NCBI RefSeq assembly: GCF_019649055.1
Contig: NW_026570223.1
Span: 62,001 to 126,000 of the forward strand
DNA: 64,000 nucleotides
Reading direction: 5' to 3'
Source of the DNA: Paramacrobiotus metropolitanus
Taxonomy: Eukaryota > Tardigrada > Eutardigrada > Parachela > Macrobiotidae
A program made the translations under genes and the position numbers. Positions 8,752 through 46,210 of the stretch are shown in pieces (within the stretch, counting starts at the first letter, position 1; each line of letters opens with the position of its first letter). The notes below the pieces were generated by a model that was not told where the DNA came from, did no database searches, and saw only the letters and a program-made list of their open reading frames with translations.

Positions 8752-10224
8752 CTATTCGGACGCCGTATTGTAAACGATACGAGACTTGTCATTCAATGCC
8801 ATAAGGACCAAAATGTATCCAAAAATGGAACAACCAATCTGAAAAAATTACAGATTCTTGAACACTTTGCTGCCCTTTGCTGACTGAAAGTCTGAAATGT
8901 GGCATTTTGATGCCGTACTTTCCCAATAACAAAGTATGAGCATTCGCCGGGATGTGCAAGAGTTCACCTACACAAGCAAGCTTATCGCGGTTGATGCACA
9001 ATCCTGCTAGTGTCACTTGGGGTTCCATTGCGATGACTCGTTGTAGATGGCGCTCTACGGATCGGGAAACATCTGTCGGGGGTTTTTGAAATGTTAAGAT
9101 GTGATGCAGGAATCTGACGACATCTTGTTCCTATAAAACTGCTGTGTAGTGTGTGCAATACGTATTGTTTAGTGTGTGCCATACGTACTTAACGTAGCTA
9201 TCCGACAAATCGTATATACGCATTTTTGGTTCATGTTTCTTAATGGATTATTAATGGATTTCAGTACGATCGAGACTCTTACCTGCTCATTGACATACAA
9301 TACAGATAGCAGCTGTACAATCCCCATCACAGCACTGCACACTGAGAAGAGCACTGCCGCTACATCAACTTCTTTGCTCTGCACAATGCGGTCGAGAAAC
9401 ACTTGCAAAAATCCCATCGTAATAAGAAGACTCTCAGCCAATGTCATAATATTCAGCCAAGAGAAATGTTCGTCGTATTGGCACAATCTATGACAGACTT
9501 CGTAATGCACAGCCAGCGCCTCTCGCAATGTTTTGCAATAATCACTCCGATATAAACTCAGCGAATCAATATGCTGTTGAATTGCAGCTAACTGCAGCCC
9601 TTCCATAAAAGGATGCACAATAAGAACACACTGGACAATTCGGAAACCGATGACGCCCATCTCGTATAATACGTGCATACATAACGAAAGCGATTGAGCT
9701 AAAACACCTAGCTTGTTAAATGTATCGTCAAGCCGGTCAAGGATCCAGCGATCGTTGATAAGAAGAATTAATTTCGATACTAAAATCTCTCCTGGACCGA
9801 TTACGAATACAAACAACGCTAATGCCGTAATTTGGACAACATGTAGCGGTTTTACTAACGAAGAGAAAGATGCTAGCATGGCCGTGCTGTTAAGCAGCAG
9901 CAATGTGCCACTGCGCCATATCTGCAGAGCGCACACTAGCCGAATTAAGGGGAATGACAATATGGGCAACCAAATCATCGCCCGGGAAATACTCCGGCCC
10001 AGGATGAATATATAGACGCTGTCAATGGTGAAAAATGCGTTGGCTGTACACTGGGATAATACGTAGAGTGTCATTGCAGATCGTATTGTGAGAGCAATAG
10101 GAAAAGATTTGGTCAACTTGAAAACTGGGAAGCAAAAATACCCACATATATGCATTCCGTAAAAGAAGAGTAAATTTTGCCATCGAAGAATTTTTATTAA
10201 TAATGCCGATCGGTCCGTCACCAT
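8752..10224 (-). CDS. GRL4: class-2 gustatory-receptor-like 7TM protein, 3 exons, intact
   Basis: Exons 10224-9283, 9130-8972 and 8838-8752 (complement) join in phase 0 to give about 395 aa. I chose ATG 10224 (MVTDRSALLIKIL) because it aligns with the MANxxxxLxxILK start of other class-2 genes; the frame is open further 5'. Landmarks are ICGYFCFP at TM1, ALQIWR in TM3, HPFMEGLQL, FSWLNIMTL.E.LL and VLYVNEQ at the end of exon 1. Exon 2 is 159 nt and carries PQVTLAGLCINRDKLAC. Exon 3 encodes CSIFGYILVLMALNDKSR plus a short tail. It is the only class-2 gene on the minus strand, lying among class-1 genes, which suggests a local inversion or an old founder copy. Chemoreceptor role is inferred from family; ligand unknown. 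Confidence 0.85.
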
Positions 10225-10989
10225 TTTATGCGATGTCCTGATGGCCCAGTGATGGGTAACATATTCGACACAAAAATGAGGAAAAAGCCAGCATACGACT
10301 GGGGACAATATGGTTGATGACGGTCTGTTCTCAATAAAAAAGGGGTATCGACTTTCTGTTAGCTTTGCGGAGATTAGAAGAAGCCGGCATGTTTGCTTTG
10401 TGCTGCTTTCTCGTTGTAAATTTGTTCATTCAGTATTTGACAGGTTTAAAGTGATCCAGTGAACAATTTCAGTCGAAAACCTCTTACCTTTCCTGTACTT
10501 CTAACTAGTGTCCTTGAATTACAGTAAAACCTTCCTGATACGTACACTCTTATGTACGTACACCCTCTGTATTAAATACACCAAAACGTTAACCAAAATT
10601 ACTGTAAACTGCAAAATACACCTCTGAGTAAAGATTCAGTTCCTACTAGTAAGTACAGTGTTAAGTGCCGTTCTTACTTAAAACCTGTCGCATGAAACAA
10701 GGCTGAATGCCCCATTTCCTTCTTGTTGCATGATTTGACTAAATAAAAGTTTCTTAACATTTTAACAGATTTGCAGATATCCGCCAATGCTCTAACCGCA
10801 TCAAAAATTTAAGCGTGGACTATAGTTTCAGATCTGCACGTATATAAGCGCGCGGCGTGCCTCAAGGCGGCATCAAGAAACATGATGGTAGCTGGTTGTT
10901 TACTTCGTACATTGATACAAAATTCTTTCAAAAGAAGCTACTAAGTAGCTTCTTATTAGCGCACCATGGAACTTCTATTTGGATTACGT
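10225..10989. other. Intergenic between GRL4 and GRL5
   Basis: Contains a short GTACGTACA-rich stretch near 10540-10565. No gene seen. It is the promoter side of GRL4 and the 3' side of GRL5. Confidence 0.45.
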
Positions 10990-12623: not shown

Positions 12624-13362
12624 TATTCTTCCAGTTCATGGTTTATACGCAATTTGTATAAGTACTATAAAGTAGCAAGAAAAACACTAGTATGAATTTC
12701 CGGAATTTCAGCGGTCTGTTTTGCAACAGTATGTAAGTTGTAGGAATGGTTCGATGCCTGTCGCACCATAACATTTTTAAGGCTCGACTACAGTACTTCG
12801 CTCTCTGCATGCTGCACGGTACTCCGTGTTTGCTCTTCACTTTATGCTAGTGTGTGCAGGTTGCGAGAACGGAAGCATCGGTCAGCAAAAAACTGCTTGC
12901 CTGAAACTAGTCTGTGTTACCAATCCGTAAGATGGTTGTTGTAATGCCTTGGCTCCGGATATAACTGAAACGGGCTTAATCGGGCGCAACTTAAATCGCG
13001 CAACATACCCGGGATGTTAGAACCAACCGACTCCATAATTTCTGCTTCTCAGGGTTTTCTTATTTCCAACTCAGTGAAACTTAGTTGGAGTTTGACCATT
13101 TACGGCGAAACGACAAATGATTCCGTAGAGTTTATAATAGTATTTAGCCACGAGATACAAATCTACAATCATTTATACAACCATTATTTGTATTCATTAG
13201 CCTCCGCTTTAGAGCGAAAGCAAAATTACAACGCAAGTAATTGCATAATATAGAGAAACGAGGAAATTAACGCGACCTTGCACTATAAAAACTAATAAGA
13301 ACCAGTACCGTTCCATAAGAACTAATAAGAACCAGTACCATAACTGATATCTGCCGTTCGAA
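12624..13362. other. Intergenic between GRL5 and the BTB gene
   Basis: No gene found. It contains an imperfect tandem duplication at about 13290-13340, where ACTAATAAGAACCAGTACC occurs twice. Confidence 0.45.
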
Positions 13363-14283
13363 CTACATGCTTTCAATCCCAGTTCTGCCCTCCATTTTCA
13401 GCATCCGCTCGCTCAGTCTCAAGACAAGATGCACTGTAGCCTGCGCGGTCATACCGCAGTCCAACAGTGTAACGTTGTCGATCAGCTGTGTGCCTTCAAA
13501 AATCAATCGCTGCTGATCCATGGGAATCCCTTCCTTATTCTGAATCCAACATTTAACCGGGTACACCCAGTAAGCCAGATTAACTGGCACAGTGAGAGTT
13601 TTTCCGGTCAAGGTCTTAACGAAAATGGTGGTATCGGGCAGCAACCGCGTCGGCTGGAGAAAGTTCTTCCACAATGCCGGCTTCGGTGCAATTACCTGTT
13701 GCAGCTCATCCATGGTCCAGGACGCCCCGGAAGAATGCAGGATGCGCAACAGACTGAACAGTCCGCACAGAATCATCCGACTGCCCACCTCCTTTGGTTC
13801 AGCGTGGCGGTAAATAGCCCGGACAGCATCCAGGACGGGGATCTGCTCCAGATTGACGACCGGATGGCACAGACGCTCTACAAACGCCACCTGCGTCCAC
13901 AGTTTCAGCTGCGGAATTTCCCAAATCAACGCCAACTTCATGACCTCATACAGGAAGAACGGAGCCGCTCGGCGGGGATCGACTGGCAGAGATTCGTTCT
14001 TATTTACCGCCGCGTCCAGCACAGTCGCAACAACCGCTAAACTGCAGTCCAATCCGTAGGAGCCGACTTTTCCCATTTCTCCCTCGGCGAAGATGGCACG
14101 TGCTTTTGGCGACACACTGGCCAGAATCTGCCGATCCATCTCGATCTTTCCCTGTCGCGTGTTCAGCACCACGGTATCCGTTCCTTCCATGACACCCCCT
14201 TTTGCCAGGGCTGGACACTCCGGGATGGTCTGCCGAAATTTACTGAACAGCTGCCCCAGAAAACGTCGCAACGGCACACGCAT
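13363..14283 (-). CDS. BTB/POZ protein with integral C-terminal ubiquitin-like domain
   Basis: A single-exon frame of 306 aa from ATG 14283; the frame stays open to about 14390 (after a TGA) without a further ATG, so an upstream exon is possible. Residues about 32-125 read as a BTB fold: GTDTVVLNTRQGKIEMDRQI then LASVSPKARAIF. Residues 125-205 look like a BACK-type helical region. Residues 220-290 are clearly ubiquitin-derived: FVKTLTGKTLTV, IQNKEGIPMDQQRLIFEG, TVHLVLRL. Ubiquitin K6, K11, K27 and K33 are kept, the I44 patch (RLIF) is kept, K48 is Thr and K63 is Ala. The terminal Gly-Gly is replaced by SERMLKM and a 16-residue tail, so it cannot be conjugated or released like ubiquitin. Known: BTB proteins often recruit Cul3 ligases and UbL domains can bind proteasome or ubiquitin-binding partners. 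Inference: an adaptor that uses UbL as a docking module. Confidence 0.8.
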   Translation of the reverse strand: MRVPLRRFLGQLFSKFRQTIPECPALAKGGVMEGTDTVVLNTRQGKIEMDRQILASVSPKARAIFAEGEMGKVGSYGLDCSLAVVATVLDAAVNKNESLPVDPRRAAPFFLYEVMKLALIWEIPQLKLWTQVAFVERLCHPVVNLEQIPVLDAVRAIYRHAEPKEVGSRMILCGLFSLLRILHSSGASWTMDELQQVIAPKPALWKNFLQPTRLLPDTTIFVKTLTGKTLTVPVNLAYWVYPVKCWIQNKEGIPMDQQRLIFEGTQLIDNVTLLDCGMTAQATVHLVLRLSERMLKMEGRTGIESM

Positions 14284-14534
14284 GGTGACGAAACAATAGG
14301 CTTCGCGGAAGATCCCGAGTTCCTGGCAGCACTCCGAATACGTCTGACCTAGGGCCGAAATCAAACTGTCAGGATTCTGTCAGGATTCAAATGTCGAATC
14401 AAACTTGCTTCAAAATTACACAGTCCTAAGCGTGTTTAAACTAATTTCAAATAGGCAAATTAAACTGCCTAAACACAGTAAACTGCCTTTTCACTCTTTT
14501 ATTCCGATTATAAATGTAGAAAATCACGGAAATA

Positions 14535-15756: not shown

Positions 15757-16766
15757 TCAAGAACGGCTAAAAATGTTTGCATTTGACTGACCGTTGATGT
15801 TCTTCAGTGTGTTGTTGATGAAGTCCATGTTGGTAGCATGGGTCGCCGCCATTTCAATGTGAACGATCGGGCTTCCGCGATGGTCCGGATTAATGAACGC
15901 CAGTTGCACCTCTGTTAGAATGCATTCGTCCGGAAGGCGCTCCAACTGGATCCTGGCCTGCCATGGAATCTCGAAACCACGCTTAGACTCGTCCTCGGAA
16001 GAGTGTCGTCGGTTTGTCGCCACCTTTTCCTGCACTGCAACGCACTATTGGCCATTACTCTTTTTCAAATGCTTTACATCGGATGTAGATCAGTGAACCA
16101 TACTAGGATATGCAGATAACGACGAATTATAAATTTACAACAGAATAATAATTATATAGTTTCTCAGCAGTACATTCTTAAACGCATCACTAGACGATTT
16201 CCTTAAAAACGGAGATTAGACTGAAAACTCTCGTACAAGGACCCTACTACAGTATTACACGATGCGATGCGTCGCCATCAGCTACATTTGGGGGTTGATC
16301 AGACAAACAGCCGTCAAAGAACGACTTTAAAAGGTCAATACTTACGAAACACTTGCAGTCCAACGCCGTTCTCCAGCCATGCTGGCAATGGGGAAATTTC
16401 GTGGCCAGTCCGTGACACACGCACTCGCTGCAGTTTTCCCTGACCGTAATGGTTCCACATCGCGGAATGCAAGTCTTGTAAAGCCTTCTGAAAAGTGTAC
16501 ATGGCGCGGCACAATACGGCACCGTCATCCGTCGCGCCCGATTCCATGTTGGCCAACTGATAATGGGCGAGCAACTGCAAAAGTCCCGTTTCCAACAGGC
16601 GCTGCTCATTTAAACGGTCGGGGTGTTGTGCGTTGATGATGCGGACTTGGCGAGGGAAATGGAGCGAGATGCGGCCATCAAGGTCCAGATGGTGCTCTGT
16701 CGAATGTCGGATCGTGAAGCCATTTCCAGCTACGTCAAACCCCTTCTTCATCCTTTTGCCGTCCAT
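15757..16766 (-). CDS. Unknown protein, 232 aa, two exons
   Basis: Exon 1 is 16766-16346 and exon 2 is 16034-15757 (complement). Donor GTAAGT and acceptor TTGCAG join in phase 1; the total is 699 nt, an exact multiple of three, ending in TGA or TAA after NIFSRS. The start ATG opens MDGKRMKKGFDVAGNGF. No signal peptide or membrane segment is seen. The sequence is mixed alpha/beta in character; exon 1 has a long amphipathic stretch (LNEQRLLETGLLQLLAHYQL), exon 2 has LPDECILTEVQLAFINPD then GSPIVHIEMAATHATNMDFI. I do not recognise the family. It lies next to the BTB-ubiquitin gene on the same strand but about 2.5 kb away, so no operon is implied. A 33-bp tandem duplication sits directly upstream of its start. 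Confidence 0.6.
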
Positions 16767-16767
16767 T

Positions 16768-16836
16768 TCTTAGCGCTTGTCGATCGGACAAAACCAAAAA
16801 TCTTAGCGCTTGTCGATCGGACAAAACCAAAAATCT
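16768..16836. repeat. Tandem duplication, 33-bp unit x2
   Basis: CTTAGCGCTTGTCGATCGGA plus ACAAAACCAAAAAT occurs twice in direct succession. It lies immediately upstream (minus strand) of the ATG at 16766, so it would fall in the 5' UTR or core promoter of that gene. Confidence 0.85.
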
Positions 16837-18591
16837 GGAGGAACACAATCAACTAGAGACACTGTTGCAAGTGGTACAAATCCATCCAGTTTTCCATACC
16901 GATACGCTCAGTGCCAGTGGCTCACGATCAACATCTTACCTGAAGAGCTCCGGTTTCCCGTTGGATAAATACCTTACCTGCCTACCGTTCCCTGTCCGAC
17001 CACAGTACGCAGAAAATTACAAAAGGCTTGAGAAGATTCCTTTGGAATAGCAGAATATTCCTTAGATCAAACCCAGCATGGAAATGAATCACGATTATTG
17101 GACTGTGGCTTATAAGCCGCTCGCTGGGTCCATAAATTTTACGTTAAACGCACGATTGCGAACAACTCGGAACGACTATTTAAACCGTTACTAACGGGTA
17201 AAGCAGGTGGAGCATGTGAGCCGGCGAATCACCGGGCTAATAAGTACCCGTACCGGTCGTACGTACTGTTGCCTGTGGGCACGTGCTTATATGGCAAGCC
17301 ACACAGGACAGTTTCTAATGCGCTGACAGGTATCTTCGCAGTTACACACTGGCGAAGCCCATGTTATACGATAAGTGGCGCACCATGACCACGCCCATTG
17401 CTGCATGCGCATGAGCACAGAATAATAATTTGGGCGTCCGTAGGCGGTGACGATCGACGCATTGAGCCTATTGCTTCTGTTAGTTTTGTTCCTTTATATT
17501 TATACTAAGTAGCGGTGGTTGTTAACCACATTAGTGACGTTGCGCAAACGCGCTTCTGGTGGCAGTTGCTTGTCGCTCGTCGCTTTTATCCAGTCTGTGC
17601 TCTGTCTACCAGAGATAGAGCGCAGACTGGATAAAAGCGACGAGCGACAAGCAACTGCCACCAGAAGCGCGCTGCGCAACGTCACTATTATTGCACGAGC
17701 GCGAGCGCCAATACCACTGAGTAGTGGTACTGGGTTCGTGGAACTGGAAAAGTGAGCCGCCACTGTGAGCGGTGACGCTCTTCGTGGCGTCATTGCGTCA
17801 GACAAATTTATGCTCTTGACGATCAGTTAATTGCAGAACCTCGCGCTTCGCGCTCGGTGCAAAGAAGACGGCAGTGGCAGACTAGCAGAAAAGCAGCGAC
17901 TGCCTCTGATCAGTATTTGTGATTCTGTAAAATTTTTTCAACCGAGCCCAACAACAGCAGTAAATCAAAAACAATAATTCTTACCCCGCGCAATACTGTA
18001 GAGAAAGATTATACTGTAATGTGTTAGGTCGCTTAGATTTCTTTCAGATGATATTTTGTATTTCCAGATAGTGCATTTGACCAAGTTGCTTCGCAGATAC
18101 TCTATGCTTCTATTACATTCAAAATTTAATGCAGTGTTTTTTAAGCTGGCGTTGCAGAAGCCACACCTAGTATCCTTTGTTGGTTAGTTTGATGCTCTTA
18201 GACAAAGTAGTGTCAGCAGGTTTCGAAAATATAACCTGGTCTCCAAAGTTATGGTGTTTGTTGAGGATGTTGACTGCCGGTGCTGTTGGCATTGCAGTTG
18301 GAACTGCAGTTGAAGGCGCCATCAAGCGCCTGCTTATAAATCTATCATAGTACAAATTTGTTCTGCAATGTATAAGAAGTCACAATTCATCTGAGAATTT
18401 CACGTAAATCGGTGATTAAGGTAATAATAGCATGCTCTGCAAACTGAAAAAACTTTGGAAACGGAAGTACTGACTTTTTAGATTCGTTTCTGATGTTCTT
18501 AATGTTCTTAATCTACCGTAACTCAGGTAGTTGGCTCATTGTTACTGTTACATCCGCACAACCCAACTTGAGTACACGTGTAATAGAAGCA
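16837..18591. other. Intergenic, partly GC-rich, with a long hairpin
   Basis: No gene supported. It contains the hairpin at 17533-17686 and a GC-rich flank to about 17900 with a second small palindrome (CCAATACCACT / AGTGGTACTGG near 17708-17734). This may be one larger inserted element, but I could not find its outer ends. Confidence 0.45.
17533..17686. repeat. Long near-perfect hairpin (about 70-bp arms)
   Basis: The left arm 17533-17604 starts AGTGACGTTGCGCAAACGCG; the right arm, about 17615-17686, is its inverted copy ending GTCACT. The arms differ at only a few bases and the spacer is about 10 bp. This is the layout of a foldback or MITE-type element or of a template-switch product. No open frame is involved. 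Confidence 0.85.
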
Positions 18592-25135: not shown

Positions 25136-27136
25136 GGCATGTACTGTCGATATTCTGACTTTGACGATTGTTGCCTCTGGAACGGGATCATGGCGCTACA
25201 ACATTGTCGCAAAAACCTATAACGATCAAACTGAAAAATTTTATCTATTATTCGAAATATTGTATTAAGTGTAAATAAATGGATCGGAGTGCACTTTGCA
25301 TGCGTATTAACTATATCCGTTCGACATTTTGAATTTTAATGCATATATGTATTTTGGTAAAACGGTTATTGTCATATGTCAGCTAAATTCAGAATTCCGA
25401 CATTCTTTTTATTCAGCTGTGGTACAACGCATTATACATAAATCCAGAATATCCCAATTTTTACAATACAACATTAAAACTTCAATAAAATTTTCTGCTC
25501 TTTTCTTTTGTTCCCATCAGTGATGCTGCGTTTCCCCGCGTTGTACCGTATCTCCAGTGATATTCTCTAACGCAAAAATTCATGATAACGGGGTTCGCTC
25601 GTTGTTGTAATCGTTTACCCAGCTCATTTATAATGGCGATAGATGACCGTCTTCATGGGCCCATTGTTGCGAAGGCTATCGGTGCAGTTCGGACATTTGG
25701 ATTCCCTCTATTAATGCATCAAAACGATTATATTAGTTGCAAAATGCAGCTACGACTTCGTAGTGAGAGATAATGTTACTTTATTAAGACAGTTACATAC
25801 TGTACATTGATGTAACTGCTTGTTACCTGCTTGTTATTCGATAATAATAATCATAATAATAATAATGATGATGTTACAGGCTAAATTACATACTTTGATA
25901 AAAAGCAATTTCGGAACCTATCTGTACAGTACTGGTGGCAGTCTGGCAGAACACCATGCATTTGCTCTAACGTCAGTTGCATATTGAAAGATGGTGATAC
26001 TGGGTACCGATCAAAGCACACATCTCTGACGTAATAATCAGCTGACCGGTTAGTCTTTATAGGTCTGTGTCGGTTCATTTGCGCAGGCGACTATCAAAGT
26101 CGAGTCAACCGGGTTTAATAAAGGGCATGCGACAATAACAACCGACTAATTACACTATGCTGATTACCTGATCTGTGCCTCCAAGAGTTGCCTCGAGCCC
26201 AGTGGTGTCATCCCGCATGATGCCGCAATTTTTGTCCTCACTTCTAGTTCCTATTTCATTCAGTCGTCGACCCTCCAGAATCCACACAATTGCCGCACTT
26301 CGATAAGTAGAGTGTCCAGGCACCTAATACGTGACAGTTATGACTTTCTTTAGCCTACAGAGTTTCCGTGTTTCAGTATGCTACATAATTAGCAAAATAA
26401 CTCAGTCAAACGGCTACCGTTGCAATTTTCCAGTTTTTCTGTTTCGGTACTCGCAGCGCCCAAGTAACAAACAAAAAATAAGGTCTGTTTGAAGAGATTT
26501 AACAATTGCAGCCTCTACGGTTACGTTGCACTTGAAAAAGCATAAACACATTTTTGTAGAACGGTGCAGTACAGTATCAAGATTATGCGGAAGCTGTTAT
26601 TAAGAGGCACAGCATCAATCTTTTGGAACCTTCATATAGTAATTCATCAACGATATCTCCTCTGCTGAACCATAGAACATATAAGCAAAACTGTTGCAAA
26701 ATCAAAAATGTGCACTAATAACTGTCAAAGGCACAATTTTTATGCAAAGGGAAAATAACTCTAGGATAGCCTCTACGGTATATGTTGCAAAGTTCCTCAA
26801 GCTAAATACCACATCAAAAAGAAAAATAATTCGACAAGGAAGGTGCGGAAAACTGTAATTGTATCGCATTAAAGTTCAATACCGCTCCTTTATCGAAAAT
26901 ACCGGCAGAAACCAAAATAGATGGCAATTAGGCCAAGCTGGATAATCATGTGCGGTAACTGTGGGACAGCATTGCGTCACCCTGGTTCAATTAGTGCCTC
27001 CCATCCGCAATTCTTTGCCTCATTCTTCCTCTGAATCATCCTGTGATTAATTTTCGCGCTAAATTTCTTGCTTATAATTACTCCGAACCACATATAAACG
27101 CCATAACAGCTTCAGCATGCTTCAGTTTTCTTTCAA
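25136..27136. other. Two-kilobase intergenic region upstream of the GPCR
   Basis: No gene supported. It holds an AAT-rich microsatellite near 25838-25872 and two partial direct repeats (GCCTCTACGGT near 26509 and 26770). The last 500 bp would hold the GPCR promoter. Confidence 0.45.
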
Positions 27137-28147
27137 ATGCTCCGCCTAATATTGACATTAACCATGAATCGCAACATCTCCCACGACCATAACCTTACAC
27201 GCATCGACCCGCTCGCTCTCTCACCGAACATGCGTGCATCCATCAGTCAATTCACCTGGCTGCACTGGTTGACCGTTGTCATGTCCGTTATCACTTTAAC
27301 GGGCAACCTCAGTCTGCTGTCCATTTTTTATAAACTACGCGAGCTCCTTACTCCCTTCACTATTTATATCATCAGTCTTTTGTTGGCTAACATCGCCGGC
27401 GCCCTGTTTACCTTCAATCCGTTCATTGCCGCCATCAACAGTCTCCTAACCGAACAGGACTCCCCCTTCTTTTGCGCTTTTCCGCGTTTTTTCGCCGTGG
27501 CCATCGGCCCACTGTCTCCATTGTATCATATGAGCATCGCTCTCAACCGCCTGTGGGCGGTAACGTGGCCGTTATCGTACCGTTCCAAACACACAAAAAG
27601 GACAGCGATAATTATTTGCATTCTCTGCTGGGCAGCGATTACCGCCTTTGCGGTAACGGTCACCACGGTGGATACGGTTTTGTACAGCGACGCCTTGGAC
27701 AATGTGCAGTGCAGTTATAGTCGCGTAGTGCCTTCGGAATTTTACTGGCTGCCGTTTCATAACTGGGCGTTTTATGCACTGCCGGAAATCGTTATTGTCA
27801 TCAGTTATCCGTACTTTGTCATCCGTCGACGAAAGATTGCCGTTGGGACGCGAAAAACGGCAAATTCTTCTGACACTGACCCATTGCCTTTCGCCGTTGC
27901 TCACGCAGAAACCGGCAAACATAGACACATTGTGGATAAAAGGTCAAGTGGGTCATTTTTCTTGCTGTCACTCATGACCTTTAGTGTAGCGGTCTGCTGG
28001 AGCGTGTCCAACATCTATTTCATGTCGGGAACGCTGTTGGCCAATAATCGTGTTTTGTACTTGACCGGGCGGATTTTCAAGATGGCACAGGCGACCCTTG
28101 ATCCAGTTATTTTTGCATTCGCTCGGCCGAGAATTCTTCGTAAATGA
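27137..28147 (+). CDS. Rhodopsin-like (class A) G-protein-coupled receptor, intronless, divergent
   Basis: 336 aa from ATG 27137, or 327 aa from ATG 27164, which starts MNRNISHDHNLTRIDP with two N-glycosylation sites (NIS, NLT). Seven hydrophobic segments are clear. TM1 has TGNLSLLSIF (the usual GN). TM2 has SLLLANIAG, with Asn where class A has the Asp sodium site. TM3 begins after FFCAFPRFF (conserved Cys) and ends ALNRLWAVTWPLSY, an NRL in place of DRY. TM6 has VCWSVSNIYF. TM7 has LDPVIFAFARP, a DPxxF form of NPxxY. The C-terminus ends after about six residues (RILRK); a GTAAAT at the stop could be a donor to a further exon. Ligand unknown; it does not look like an opsin, as the TM7 Lys is missing. 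A degraded copy lies at 23.9 kb. Confidence 0.85.
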   Translation: MLRLILTLTMNRNISHDHNLTRIDPLALSPNMRASISQFTWLHWLTVVMSVITLTGNLSLLSIFYKLRELLTPFTIYIISLLLANIAGALFTFNPFIAAINSLLTEQDSPFFCAFPRFFAVAIGPLSPLYHMSIALNRLWAVTWPLSYRSKHTKRTAIIICILCWAAITAFAVTVTTVDTVLYSDALDNVQCSYSRVVPSEFYWLPFHNWAFYALPEIVIVISYPYFVIRRRKIAVGTRKTANSSDTDPLPFAVAHAETGKHRHIVDKRSSGSFFLLSLMTFSVAVCWSVSNIYFMSGTLLANNRVLYLTGRIFKMAQATLDPVIFAFARPRILRK

Positions 28148-42557: not shown

Positions 42558-44259
42558 ATGGTCAACAAACCGGCTTTCTTAACTGGCATTCTAAAAGTAC
42601 ACAACACCAGTTGGTTGTGTTTTTTGCATGTATGTGGGTACTTCTGTTATCCGATCCACATATTTGTCAGATTCCGGCAGTTGCGCCTCATCGTACATTG
42701 TGCAATGGGTCTTTATGTGCTGCTGCAGTTTGGCGCCAATTTAATTTACGATGCCTCTTTCTTCCATCGAACGGAAGACTTACAAATAAGCAACAGCATG
42801 TCGCGGGTACTAATTAATCTACCGGTTTTGTTGATCTTTCCTTTCACTCGGTTATGTTATGCTATACAGATATGGCGCATTGCTGGCTTCTTACCGCATT
42901 ACACCCGTGCAGTTGTCGAATCATTCACCCCTTTCACCGAACTTCACCATTTGATCAAAATATTGTCAGTATCTCTTGGTCTGTTTTCGTTTCTTCCTGG
43001 AATATTTGTGGGCACCAATTTGTTTTATATGCAGAGTGATACGACATTTTTAGCCGCTGAATACCACTACATTTTCGGTGATTATGGCATGCCGATAATT
43101 ATGTGCATAAAGCTGGCGCTCCTTCCATCGATAGCTGGTTATGAAACTGTGTTGTGTCTGCTGGTGTTATTCCCTTTCATGGAAGGACTCCAACTGAGAG
43201 AGGTTGGCCGACGGATCCGTTCTGTATCGTTTAAAACGGAAGATCATTCTGCAGTCTTAAAAAACATTTTAGAACTGCACTTGTCAACCTGCCGGCGGTT
43301 GCGCGAATACAACAAACGGCTTTCTTGGCTGAATATCATGACCTTCACCGAGTCGCTACTGATCGGCATGGGATATCTGCAGATCATTCTCAATCAGGTT
43401 GTACAACAGAAGAGCGCAAAGCTGGATAACGGAATTCCTTTAATGTCGAGCGTTATTATGGTGGGAGCATTACTGGCATCTGTAGTATATGTCAACGAAG
43501 GCGTAAGTAATCCCTTATTCTGTGTAACCCAAATTAAATGTAGAATTTATGATTCAGAAAAGCACAAAAAGTGTCATGTTGCCGTTTACCACACCGCTGT
43601 TACTTGTACTTTTGTTCAACGCAATACAGGATGACATTAATGGTCTGCCGCTTGTTTATTTTTGGCTACACTCAAACGATGGTTTGCATTACTATTATTA
43701 TTATTATTATGGCACAAGAGCAACAACCCCAATGGGACTTCAAATCTGGTCGAATGTACAATCTACAATGTACTGTACAATCCTCGATCCGCTTCATAGG
43801 CGCACCTAAAACGTTCTAGGCATTGTTCCGTTTTTTCCTGTTAAACGAATGGATAGGACACAATCATTTTTTAGACTGTCCAAACTGCGAATGCCTGGCG
43901 TCATGTGCTTGCATTTCATCAACCACCGGCCGATGCAGTTGCTGCGATCGAGAACCACCTTCACTGCACTGATATGCTACAACCGGAAATTACTTTCGCC
44001 GGTATATATGTGGATCGGATTCGAGCTTCAGCTGTAAGTTTTGGCTTACCAGTGGACTGACGGTCATTCCCCCAAAGGGCAAACCAAGCCTTTTAGACAA
44101 GAAAATGAATAAATGAACAGAGAAATACTTGTATGCAGACGGCAGCAGGCCCAGAGTTACTAGGCAAATCCAAGCAACAATTTGATGTTTTTGTAGATAG
44201 CGGGCAGCGTCATGGGATATGTACTACTTCTGGCAGAGCTTAGTGATAAACGCCGCTGA
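42558..44259 (+). CDS. GRL14: class-2 gustatory-receptor-like 7TM protein, 3 exons, intact
   Basis: Exons 42558-43502, 43875-44033 and 44197-44259, phase 0, encode 388 aa. Start MVNKPAFLTGILKVHN in context CTATAAATGG. Landmarks: HVCGYFCYPI, MGLYVLLQFGANLIYDASFF, FPFTRLCYAIQIWRIAGFLP, FSFLPGIFVGTNLFY, FPFMEGLQLREV, LSWLNIMTFTESLLIGMGYL and VVYVNEG at the donor. Exon 2 carries HQPPADAVAAIENHLHCTDM then LQPEITFAGIYVDRIRASA. Exon 3 reads IAGSVMGYVLLLAELSDKRR. Intron 1 (372 bp) holds a short (TTA)n microsatellite at about 43690-43710. Exons 2-3 and about 550 bp downstream are duplicated at 54.7 kb. Unusual: Gly in place of Arg or Lys as last residue of exon 1. Confidence 0.88.
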
Positions 44260-44820: not shown

Positions 44821-46210
44821 TTGCTTATTGTTTATTGTACGGCAGGCAGGTAACCCATTAAAAGGCTAGGATCGAGATCTAGCCTGGGAATTTAAACCTG
44901 GCTAAATAACAGAAATCATAATGAAATTAGAGCAAAAGCCACAAAACAAGAGAAGTACTAAGAAAAGAAAGGCAAGTAACATGCTTCAGTGCATTACGAA
45001 AAACAGCAAGCGAACTGCTCTTAAGAATGTCGCTTCCGGCCTCGGTTAGCTGGCTCATAACGTTGTTCAGCCTCCACGCCAACGTGGACTTCCCCGTCCT
45101 TGTCCTTCCCTGTCCTTCGATGAAGGTCCTGTTTCCGCTTCGAAGGCTGTACGGTTTGGAATCGTGTTTTACGACGATCATTTCGGTGAGGTAACGGGGC
45201 ACTTGGAACTTCTCCGGGTGCAGAATTTTGTAAAGCCAAGTTGCTTCCTGGTGTTTCCATCGCTTAAACAGTGGCGTTATCTCGTATTGCTTCATCAGGT
45301 CGGTGGTGGACACTTCGGCATAGTTGGCAATAGCTCGAATGGCTTTTCTTTGCGTGACAGCCAGCGGCTCCAGCGTGATAAAGTCCAACGCGTTGGGGCA
45401 CCGGCAGCCCGCTCTTCACACTGTTTATGAGGGCGACTCCATGATAAGCACTTTTTTGAACCTTTTTAATTTGGTCGGTCCATTTTAAATGCTCGTCCAT
45501 TATCACTCCCAAGTGCTTCACTGATTTTTCCGGTTCAAGCTTATGCCCATTCAAATCAACCGACACGATGCTTTTGTCCCGACTGTACGCTGAAGTGATC
45601 ATGAGCAGCTTAGACTTCTTTTCATTGACAACCAAGCGGTTCAGTTCAAACCACTCACAAATTATTGGAAGCACAGCGGTAATTTTATCTGCTGCACCTG
45701 ACTTCGTGTCTGCTATCGCATAGCAGACCGTGTCATCAGCGAAACTTTCTAACCGGACATCAGGACAACGTAAATTTATTTTCAATAATTCGTTCAGGTA
45801 AATGATAAAAAGTAATGGACCGAGAATGGAACCCTGTGGCACACCTGCGTACACACGTTCCCATACAGACATCCGTTCACCAATTCGCACCCGTTGCATT
45901 CTGCCAATGAGATACGAGTGTCACCATTCAAGTGCATCACTGTTGAAACCAAGATCGCGCAGTTTTATTAATAACAAATCATGACACACTGAAGGAAAAG
46001 CACTTTTAGATCAAGGAAAACACAAGCCACCGCCTTTTTGTTGTCAACAGCCTTTTTCCATGTTTCCGTCACTTTAAGAAGCAACGTTTCACACGAATGA
46101 CCGTTTCGAAACCCAGACTGGCATTCAGATAGAATGTCGTGACTTTTCAAAAATTTAACAATTTGCGACTGTGTTACCGACATGGGCGACATGCATATTG
46201 TATGTATAGA
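44821..46210 (-). mobile_element. 5'-truncated, decayed non-LTR (LINE) retrotransposon
   Basis: On the minus strand an RT domain runs from about 46170 to 45390: SECQSGFRNGHSCETLL, then VCVFLDL-type block, then AGVPQGSILGPLLFIIYLNE, the catalytic FADD (a YADD variant) in LESFADDTVCYAI, and KSVKHLGVIMDE. A C-terminal part (LEPLAVTQRKAIRAIANYAE) follows in another frame at 45388-44927, with a 3' tail ending near AATAAACAATAAGC. Frameshifts near 46015 and 45390 and an in-frame TGA near 45920 kill it. No endonuclease domain remains. The style suggests a Jockey/CR1-type clade. It lies in the GRL14-GRL15 spacer; the duplicate spacer at 55.7-56.8 kb lacks it, so it inserted after the duplication. Confidence 0.8.

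What the first reader, a model, noticed from the sequence alone, without database searches (positions are those of the whole stretch)
13363..14283. BTB protein with a built-in ubiquitin-like domain that lacks Gly-Gly
A single open frame joins a BTB-type region to an obvious ubiquitin derivative: TLTGKTLTV and DQQRLIFEG are nearly intact, K48 and K63 are lost, and the GG tail is replaced by a 16-residue extension. BTB adaptors bind Cul3; an internal non-cleavable UbL on such an adaptor could dock the proteasome or mimic a ubiquitinated substrate. I know of no well-described protein with this order.
Basis: partly seen in the sequence, partly recalled or inferred. Interest (0 to 1): 0.75.

Follow-up and report, generated by a model that had tools for sequence, protein, structure and literature searches.

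The report
Tardigrade BTB-like proteins with ubiquitin-like tails
What looked like one odd fused protein is part of the last exon of a three-exon gene from a family of about 35 gene copies, probably in a water bear, that end in a ubiquitin-like domain which should not be attachable to other proteins; two relatives carry the same tail on a heat-shock chaperone and on a protein kinase.

Summary
The open frame and its ubiquitin-like domain (UbL) are real (PF00240, E 4.7e-19). The frame is only part of exon 3 of a three-exon minus-strand gene (16766-13363, 549 aa).

It is not unique: 35 loci on 12 contigs of the same genome (probably the tardigrade Paramacrobiotus metropolitanus; hand-merged count) carry the BTB-like region, and a UbL adjoins 32. 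dN/dS of the window copy against five paralogs is 0.10-0.42 (exon 3, three regions). At least nine copies show frame breaks.

The "16-residue extension" is private to this copy: a 4-nt insertion destroys the Gly-Cys-stop kept by close paralogs. None of 25 UbLs has Gly-Gly. Eighteen of 25 have Cys at ubiquitin position 76, among the best-conserved positions although identity to ubiquitin falls to 20%.

The BTB call is weak: no Pfam hit, a marginal profile match. Two relatives join the cassette's first part in one frame to an Hsp70 and to a protein kinase.

Best reading: divergent BTB-type adaptors whose fixed, non-conjugable UbL is a docking or scaffold surface. Cul3 and proteasome links are untested. 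The UbL's hydrophobic patch survives in this copy but not family-wide, so patch-mediated proteasome docking cannot be the shared function. Expression is untested.

The parts
16346..16766 (-). Exon 1: start codon MDGK..., variable N-terminal region, helix and first half of the N-module (CRAMYTFQK...PLPAWLENGVGLQVF); donor GTAAGT
   Evidence: splice model; 15 paralog exons aligned with it; MDGK start in L004, L008, L010
15792..16034 (-). Exon 2: second half of the N-module (GFEIPWQARIQLERLPDECILTEVQLAFINPD...NING); GT-AG borders
   Evidence: contiguous with exon 3 in L005 and others
13363..14348 (-). Exon 3: end of the N-module, BTB-like region, linker, UbL, private tail, stop
13732..14184 (-). 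BTB-like region plus BACK-like helices (GTDTVVL...LLRILHS); remote similarity only
   Evidence: hhalign P 9e-4 and 3.4e-4, 0.003 with 28 members; no Pfam hit
13414..13632 (-). Ubiquitin-like domain (positions matching ubiquitin 1-73)
   Evidence: PF00240 E 4.7e-19; PDB ubiquitin matches; residue table
13411..13414 (-). 4-nt insertion relative to paralogs (placement ambiguous within GAGCGAGC, 13407-13414); shifts the frame past the Gly-Cys end that paralogs have
   Evidence: against L003, L004, L005; tails
13366..13413 (-). 16-residue tail SERMLKMEGRTGIESM, the reading of what is 3' flanking sequence in paralogs; out-of-frame remnant of TGC TGA at 13403-13398

Best explanation
The finding is part of the last exon of a three-exon gene in an expanded tardigrade family with a fixed cassette: N-module of about 200 aa, a highly divergent BTB/BACK-like region, then a ubiquitin-derived UbL (order shown at sequence level; BTB only probable). 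The UbL lacks Gly-Gly in all 25 copies aligned, so it should be neither cleaved off nor conjugated (inferred from ubiquitin chemistry). Most likely the protein is a BTB-type adaptor or scaffold: the BTB-like region oligomerises and may recruit a cullin-3-type ligase, the N-module or an N-terminal partner (Hsp70 and kinase in two relatives) selects clients, and the UbL is a permanent docking surface in cis (all inferred). In the window copy the ubiquitin hydrophobic patch is intact, so it could bind ordinary ubiquitin receptors; in other clades the patch is gone and the surface must do something else. The 16-residue tail of this copy is an accident of a 4-nt insertion.
For: Family of 35 loci (merged by hand) with a UbL match over Pfam's cut-off adjoining 32. 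Three-exon model with consensus splice sites, corroborated by paralogs that read across the exon 2/3 junction. dN/dS of the window copy against L002-L006, exon 3 only: 0.10-0.26 (before the BTB), 0.28-0.35 (BTB to linker), 0.18-0.42 (UbL). BTB: profile match collinear over 94-95 columns, P 3.4e-4 to 3.4e-3, reached by 0-1 of 200-300 column shuffles per test; the N-module and exon-1 profiles as controls gave P 0.45 and 0.53. Gly-Gly in 0 of 25. L8, I44, H68, V70, R72 intact in the window UbL. First part of the cassette in one frame with Hsp70 (PF00012 E 9.1e-116) and with a kinase (PF00069 E 2.1e-27).
Against: No Pfam BTB hit in the window protein or in 11 members scanned. The profile match became weaker when 28 instead of 14 members were used (P 0.003 against 0.0009), and single shuffles came close to or above it. 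A HMMER test did not separate the family from shuffled decoys with the BTB profile, and only weakly in the other direction. PDB searches: ZBTB7A best but not significant, second to an unrelated protein, nothing with N-module plus BTB. AlphaFold without an alignment failed (pLDDT 36.5 and 42.1). At least nine copies show frame breaks. No evidence for Cul3 or proteasome binding, no RNA data. The hydrophobic patch is not conserved family-wide.
Confidence: 0.4

Rival explanations
1. The -GC UbL is the working part: a ubiquitin-like domain whose terminal cysteine (in place of Gly76) does thiol chemistry (disulfide, acylation or a metal/thioester role) or is read as a C-terminal signal. The window copy has lost this function by frameshift and keeps only a partial role.
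For: Cys76 in 18 of 20 members of the two main clades other than the window copy, tied with P37 behind the invariant K27, Q40 and Q41, while mean column conservation is 51%. Exactly -GC-stop in 15 of 25. Polyubiquitin in this genome ends in plain GG-stop (L033, L034), so the Cys is not inherited from a polyubiquitin tail.
Against: Absent in L013, L022, L025, L026, L019, L028 and the window copy. Three of the 18 rows with Cys76 (L011, L015a, L015b) come from copies with a frame break upstream. No biochemical evidence; no precedent that I recall.
Confidence: 0.2
2. The BTB-like and UbL parts pack together as one structural unit, like the Elongin C (BTB/SKP1 fold) and Elongin B (UbL) heterodimer but in one chain, and serve as a cullin-box adaptor core.
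For: BTB-like part followed by an adjoining UbL in 32 of 35 loci; K27, Q40 and Q41 invariant in 25 of 25 while the patch drifts.
Against: The window UbL is 57% identical to ubiquitin, nearer than Elongin B is as I recall; contact surfaces were not modelled; the Elongin comparison is from memory.
Confidence: 0.15
3. The family is a fast-decaying multigene family; the window copy is on its way to a pseudogene and has no function.
For: Frame breaks seen by eye in at least nine copies (L002, L007, L009, L011, L015a, L015b, L032, L058, L060), some perhaps assembly errors, and the private 4-nt insertion in the window copy.
Against: dN/dS 0.10-0.42 for the window copy in exon 3, an ordinary branch length (0.21), all three exons open with consensus splice sites.
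Confidence: 0.15

Closest known systems
BTB (POZ) substrate adaptors of Cul3 ligases, for example MATH-BTB proteins such as SPOP (recalled)
   Same: An N-terminal domain, then a BTB-like region followed by helices; the genome holds a large ordinary BTB repertoire (151 PF00651 matches from 150 scored of 1036 candidates).
   Different: BTB similarity only marginal; no Pfam MATH, BTB or BACK hit; a UbL follows the helices. The searches of the open-access library listed no paper evidently on this combination (listings only).
Integral ubiquitin-domain proteins (UbL shuttles and BAG1-like co-chaperones, recalled)
   Same: A non-cleavable UbL within a longer protein; in the window clade the hydrophobic patch is mostly kept.
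   Different: UbL at the C terminus, ending in Gly-Cys in 15 of 25 copies; no UBA or BAG domain reported by Pfam in the members scanned; attached to a BTB-like region, and in two relatives to Hsp70 or a kinase.
Ubiquitin fusion precursors and polyubiquitin
   Same: UbL derived from ubiquitin (up to 59% identity).
   Different: No Gly-Gly in any of 25; nothing follows that could be released; the UbL is at the end of the protein, not the start.
Elongin B-Elongin C heterodimer (recalled)
   Same: Pairs a UbL with a BTB/SKP1-type fold.
   Different: Two chains there, one chain here; the UbL here is close to ubiquitin.

Membership tests
Ubiquitin-like domain family (PF00240) | Significant match over the domain | tested here: met
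   Window 4.7e-19, cut-off passed; 32 of 35 loci with an adjoining match over cut-off
Conjugable ubiquitin or type-1 UbL modifier | C-terminal Gly-Gly exposed directly or after cleavage | tested here: not met
   0 of 25 aligned UbLs keep Gly-Gly
BTB/POZ domain (PF00651) | Pfam match above the curated cut-off | tested here: not met
   No hit for the window protein nor for 11 members scanned
BTB/POZ domain (PF00651) | Collinear remote homology to known BTB profiles | tested here: inconclusive
   hhalign P 3.4e-4 to 3.4e-3 over 94-95 columns, reached by 0 of 200, 1 of 200, 1 of 300 and 0 of 300 shuffles; HMMER decoy test weak or negative; ZBTB7A E 0.033, 0.13
BTB/POZ domain (PF00651) | BTB fold in a confident model | not testable with these tools
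Cul3 adaptor | Binding to cullin 3 | not testable with these tools
   No structure or binding data
Proteasome-docking UbL shuttle | Conserved L8-I44-H68-V70 surface | tested here: inconclusive
   Intact in the window copy, mostly hydrophobic in its clade, largely lost in the C158/C37 copies

The most novel reading that the evidence does not exclude
A tardigrade lineage turned a ubiquitin copy into a fixed C-terminal part of an adaptor cassette, replaced Gly76 by a selected cysteine, multiplied it to about 35 copies, and moved the cassette onto an Hsp70 (in place of its unmatched C-terminal lid region) and a kinase. This would be a new class of cis-acting, non-conjugable ubiquitin-like proteins with a functional terminal cysteine that couple chaperone or kinase clients directly to the ubiquitin system.
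Probability: 0.25. Interest if true: 0.82.

Novelty: new variant of a known kind. Interest (0 to 1): 0.6.

Why it matters
It shows ubiquitin recruited as a permanent, non-transferable domain in a large gene family, with a conserved Gly-Cys end for which I recall no precedent, and with natural Hsp70 and kinase fusions that suggest what the cassette is for. In a desiccation-tolerant animal, a chaperone hard-wired to a ubiquitin-like tail would make the link between stress chaperones and protein disposal directly testable.

Tried and rejected
Rejected: a chance open frame (homologous exons with dN/dS well below 1); separate BTB and UbL genes (same exon here and in close paralogs); a cleavable ubiquitin precursor (no Gly-Gly, UbL last); the tail as a conserved feature; a Cys inherited from a polyubiquitin extension (polyubiquitin ends GG-stop); a viral source (50 pattern matches, none a relative; query without the UbL); a prokaryotic source (24 pattern matches, none a relative; single-protein query that reaches only close relatives). 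A BTB orthogroup in PMC5531438 (passages) is listed there as shared by arthropods and tardigrades, and the passage says nothing of a UbL; not treated as related.

Led nowhere: AlphaFold of exon 3 and of the UbL alone without alignments (pLDDT 36.5 and 42.1), so no fold search was run. PDB search with the 12-sequence N-module plus BTB alignment: 0 matches up to E 10; with the 11-sequence exon 2 plus BTB alignment: RsbS E 0.082 above ZBTB7A E 0.13. Pfam on 16 exon-1 sequences: only weak unrelated matches, best E 0.019. The HMMER decoy test did not help the BTB case. One script failed on a missing sequence and one on an aligner option; both were rerun in mended form.

Rows dropped: of 35 loci, 28 are in the family alignment. 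Left out: L002, L007, L009, L032, L058 and L060 (frame breaks or fragments) and C83:213k (not fetched). Small pieces at C38:179.1k, C3:256.1k, C3:260.3k and C83:581.7k were not counted as loci. The UbL table has 25 of the 28 (the other three had under 60 aa of UbL in my models). dN/dS used exon 3 of 15 copies, 14 pairs. The structure-search alignment A6 used 12 of 17 sequences prepared.

Full report
Observation. The frame at 14283-13363 on the minus strand is open for 306 aa. Its residues 220-290 match the ubiquitin family (PF00240, E 4.7e-19), and 422 distinct PDB sequences match at E up to 1, the 60 shown being ubiquitins or their derivatives and fusions. K6, K11, K27 and K33 are kept. L8, I44, H68 and V70, the hydrophobic patch, are intact in this copy.

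Gene structure. Paralogs showed that the frame is only the end of a gene. Exons 16766-16346, 16034-15792 and 14348-13363 join through GT-AG introns of 311 and 1443 nt without a frame break to 549 aa. In L005 exons 2 and 3 are one continuous frame reading through ...NINGQTYSECCQELG..., the sequence that splicing gives in the window. The window copy starts MDGK, as do L004, L008 and L010. No RNA was available.

Which organism. G000 has 169,799,020 bases in 533 contigs, and contig C1 is 4,484,719 bases long; window G+C is 43.05%. The published Paramacrobiotus sp. TYO assembly has 170,483,395 bases, 684 scaffolds, longest 4,484,941, G+C 43.46% (PMC8277472, passages). PMC11191345 (passages) gives 170 Mbp and a longest scaffold of 4.48 M for P. 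metropolitanus. I infer that G000 is a cleaned version of that assembly; it is not an exact match.

Family. Single-protein searches of G000 (merged by hand, lower bounds) give 35 loci with the BTB-like region on 12 contigs (C1, C3, C37, C38, C56, C63, C75, C83, C123, C158, C228, C400). A PF00240 match over the cut-off adjoins 32 of 35. C63:594k has a fragment about 6.4 kb away (L061); at C228:98.8k and C83:213k none was found, which does not show absence. An exon-1 query found 34 matches, nearly all at these loci. A tree of 27 members places the window copy, with an ordinary branch (0.21), in a 13-member clade. A 10-member clade on C83, C158 and C37 is separate (support 100/99). L022 and L013 are long branches, so their place is unsure. 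No relative was found in viral contigs or, with a query reaching only close relatives, in prokaryote genomes. Other animals could not be searched.

Constraint. Exon 3 dN/dS of the window copy against L002-L006 is 0.10-0.26 before the BTB-like region, 0.28-0.35 in the BTB-to-linker region and 0.18-0.42 in the UbL. Against the distant L013 and L014 most values are saturated; the two that can be computed are 0.58 (UbL, L013) and 0.46 (BTB to linker, L014). For the six other pairs with a computable UbL value it is 0.33-0.61, and L019/L020 is saturated. This argues for a protein constrained for most of its history. Against that, at least nine copies (L002, L007, L009, L011, L015a, L015b, L032, L058, L060) show frame breaks by eye, so part of the family is decaying or mis-assembled; I did not score this systematically.

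The tail. L003, L004, L005 and L006 end in ...RGC-stop. The window has four extra bases just before, which shift the frame past TGC TGA and read 16 residues of what is 3' flank in paralogs (aligned against L003, L004 and L005). L002 and L028 have other altered ends. The extension is therefore not a feature of the design. Its effect on this protein is unknown, and an assembly error was not excluded.

The Gly-Cys end. Among 25 UbLs none ends in Gly-Gly. Eighteen of 25 have Cys at ubiquitin position 76 and 15 end exactly -GC-stop. In the 20 members of the two main clades other than the window copy, Cys76 is kept in 18, level with P37 and after the invariant K27, Q40 and Q41; mean column conservation is 51%. 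Three of these rows (L011, L015a, L015b) come from copies with a frame break upstream; without them it is 15 of 17. Identity to ubiquitin falls as low as 20%. Polyubiquitin genes of this genome end in GG-stop (L033, L034). So the Cys is a family trait held through deep divergence. What it does is unexplained. L013, L022, L025, L026, L019 and L028 lack it.

BTB. Pfam finds none in the window protein or in 11 members. A 14-member profile has ZBTB7A as best PDB hit in a plausible register, but at E 0.033; an 11-member profile ranks the unrelated RsbS first (E 0.082) and ZBTB7A second (E 0.13); a 12-member profile of N-module plus BTB finds nothing. hhalign of the 14-member profile against 13 ordinary BTB domains of this genome gives P 9e-4 and 3.4e-4 over 95 collinear columns; 0 of 200 column shuffles of the target (best 26.8 against 27.5) and 1 of 200 of the query reach the observed score. 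With 28 members P is 0.003, reached by 1 of 300 and 0 of 300 shuffles. A HMMER test with shuffled decoys was weak in one direction and negative in the other. I rate BTB as probable (about three in five), not shown. The N-module has no recognisable relative.

N-terminal fusions. At C63:283.7-287.1 kb one frame of 757 codons holds Hsp70 (PF00012 residues 7-513, E 9.1e-116, profile 1-491 of 599, so the last part of the profile, the lid region as I recall it, is not matched) followed by the exon-1 domain; exon 2, BTB-like region and UbL follow in the next frame (L013). At C56:296.3-300.7 kb one frame holds the C-terminal part of a protein kinase (PF00069 E 2.1e-27) and the exon-1 domain, with a likely N-lobe frame upstream (PF07714 E 0.0048, below cut-off) and the rest of the cassette downstream (L038, L022). 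The cassette thus seems a movable C-terminal part. Splice borders and transcripts of these two genes were not checked.

Function. Shown: frame and splice-site structure, family, domain order, constraint, loss of Gly-Gly, Gly-Cys conservation. Inferred: a non-conjugable UbL acting in cis, on a probable BTB-type adaptor or scaffold, with client choice by the N-terminal part. The window clade mostly keeps the hydrophobic patch; the C158 and C37 copies have Q/W/M/K/L at 8 and Y/H/V/F at 70, so binding to the usual ubiquitin receptors cannot be the function of all. Rivals are a cysteine-based role, an Elongin B/C-like unit in one chain, and decay.

Literature. Searches for BTB with UbL, tardigrade, fusion, Cul3, Hsp70 or Paramacrobiotus listed no paper in this open-access library that is evidently about such a protein. 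I saw listings and abstract starts only, except the passages of PMC8277472, PMC11191345 and PMC5531438 named above. Subscription papers and genome annotation databases were not searched.

Noticed in passing
L013 (G000 C63:283300-287700): An Hsp70 whose match stops at profile position 491 of 599 is joined in one open frame to the family's exon-1 domain, with BTB-like and UbL parts downstream.
   Followed up: partly
L038 and L022 (G000 C56:294500-301200): The C-terminal part of a protein kinase is joined in one open frame to the same exon-1 domain, cassette downstream; HSDLKPKN and DLDD stand where the usual catalytic motifs would be (motifs recalled).
   Followed up: partly
window 18448-59955, mostly + strand: Array of about ten similar single-frame proteins (MANK..FL..ILK.HNT.WLCFLH.CGYFCYP; counted by eye) that look like multi-pass receptors; the one array member scanned (42558-43631) and a similar minus-strand frame (9172-10425) had no Pfam family at cut-off.
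   Followed up: partly
window 27107-28144 +: Rhodopsin-type GPCR (7tm_1 E 7e-20) inside the array.
   Followed up: partly
window 45267-45920 -: Reverse transcriptase fragment (RVT_1 E 4.9e-13).
   Followed up: no
window about 16770-16860 and 13281-13345: Short tandem duplications just upstream of the start codon (gatttttggttttgtccgatcgacaagcgctaa) and in the 3' flank (ggtactggttcttattagtt) of the gene.
   Followed up: no
G000 as a whole: Large ordinary BTB repertoire (151 matches from 150 scored of 1036 candidates) and many Hsp70 matches (88, counted exon by exon).
   Followed up: no
L008, L010, L012, L027-L030 (C63) against the window: Intron positions seem to differ between subfamilies: the C63 copies read across the exon 2/3 junction but break inside the BTB-like region after ...DRQILV.
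   Followed up: no
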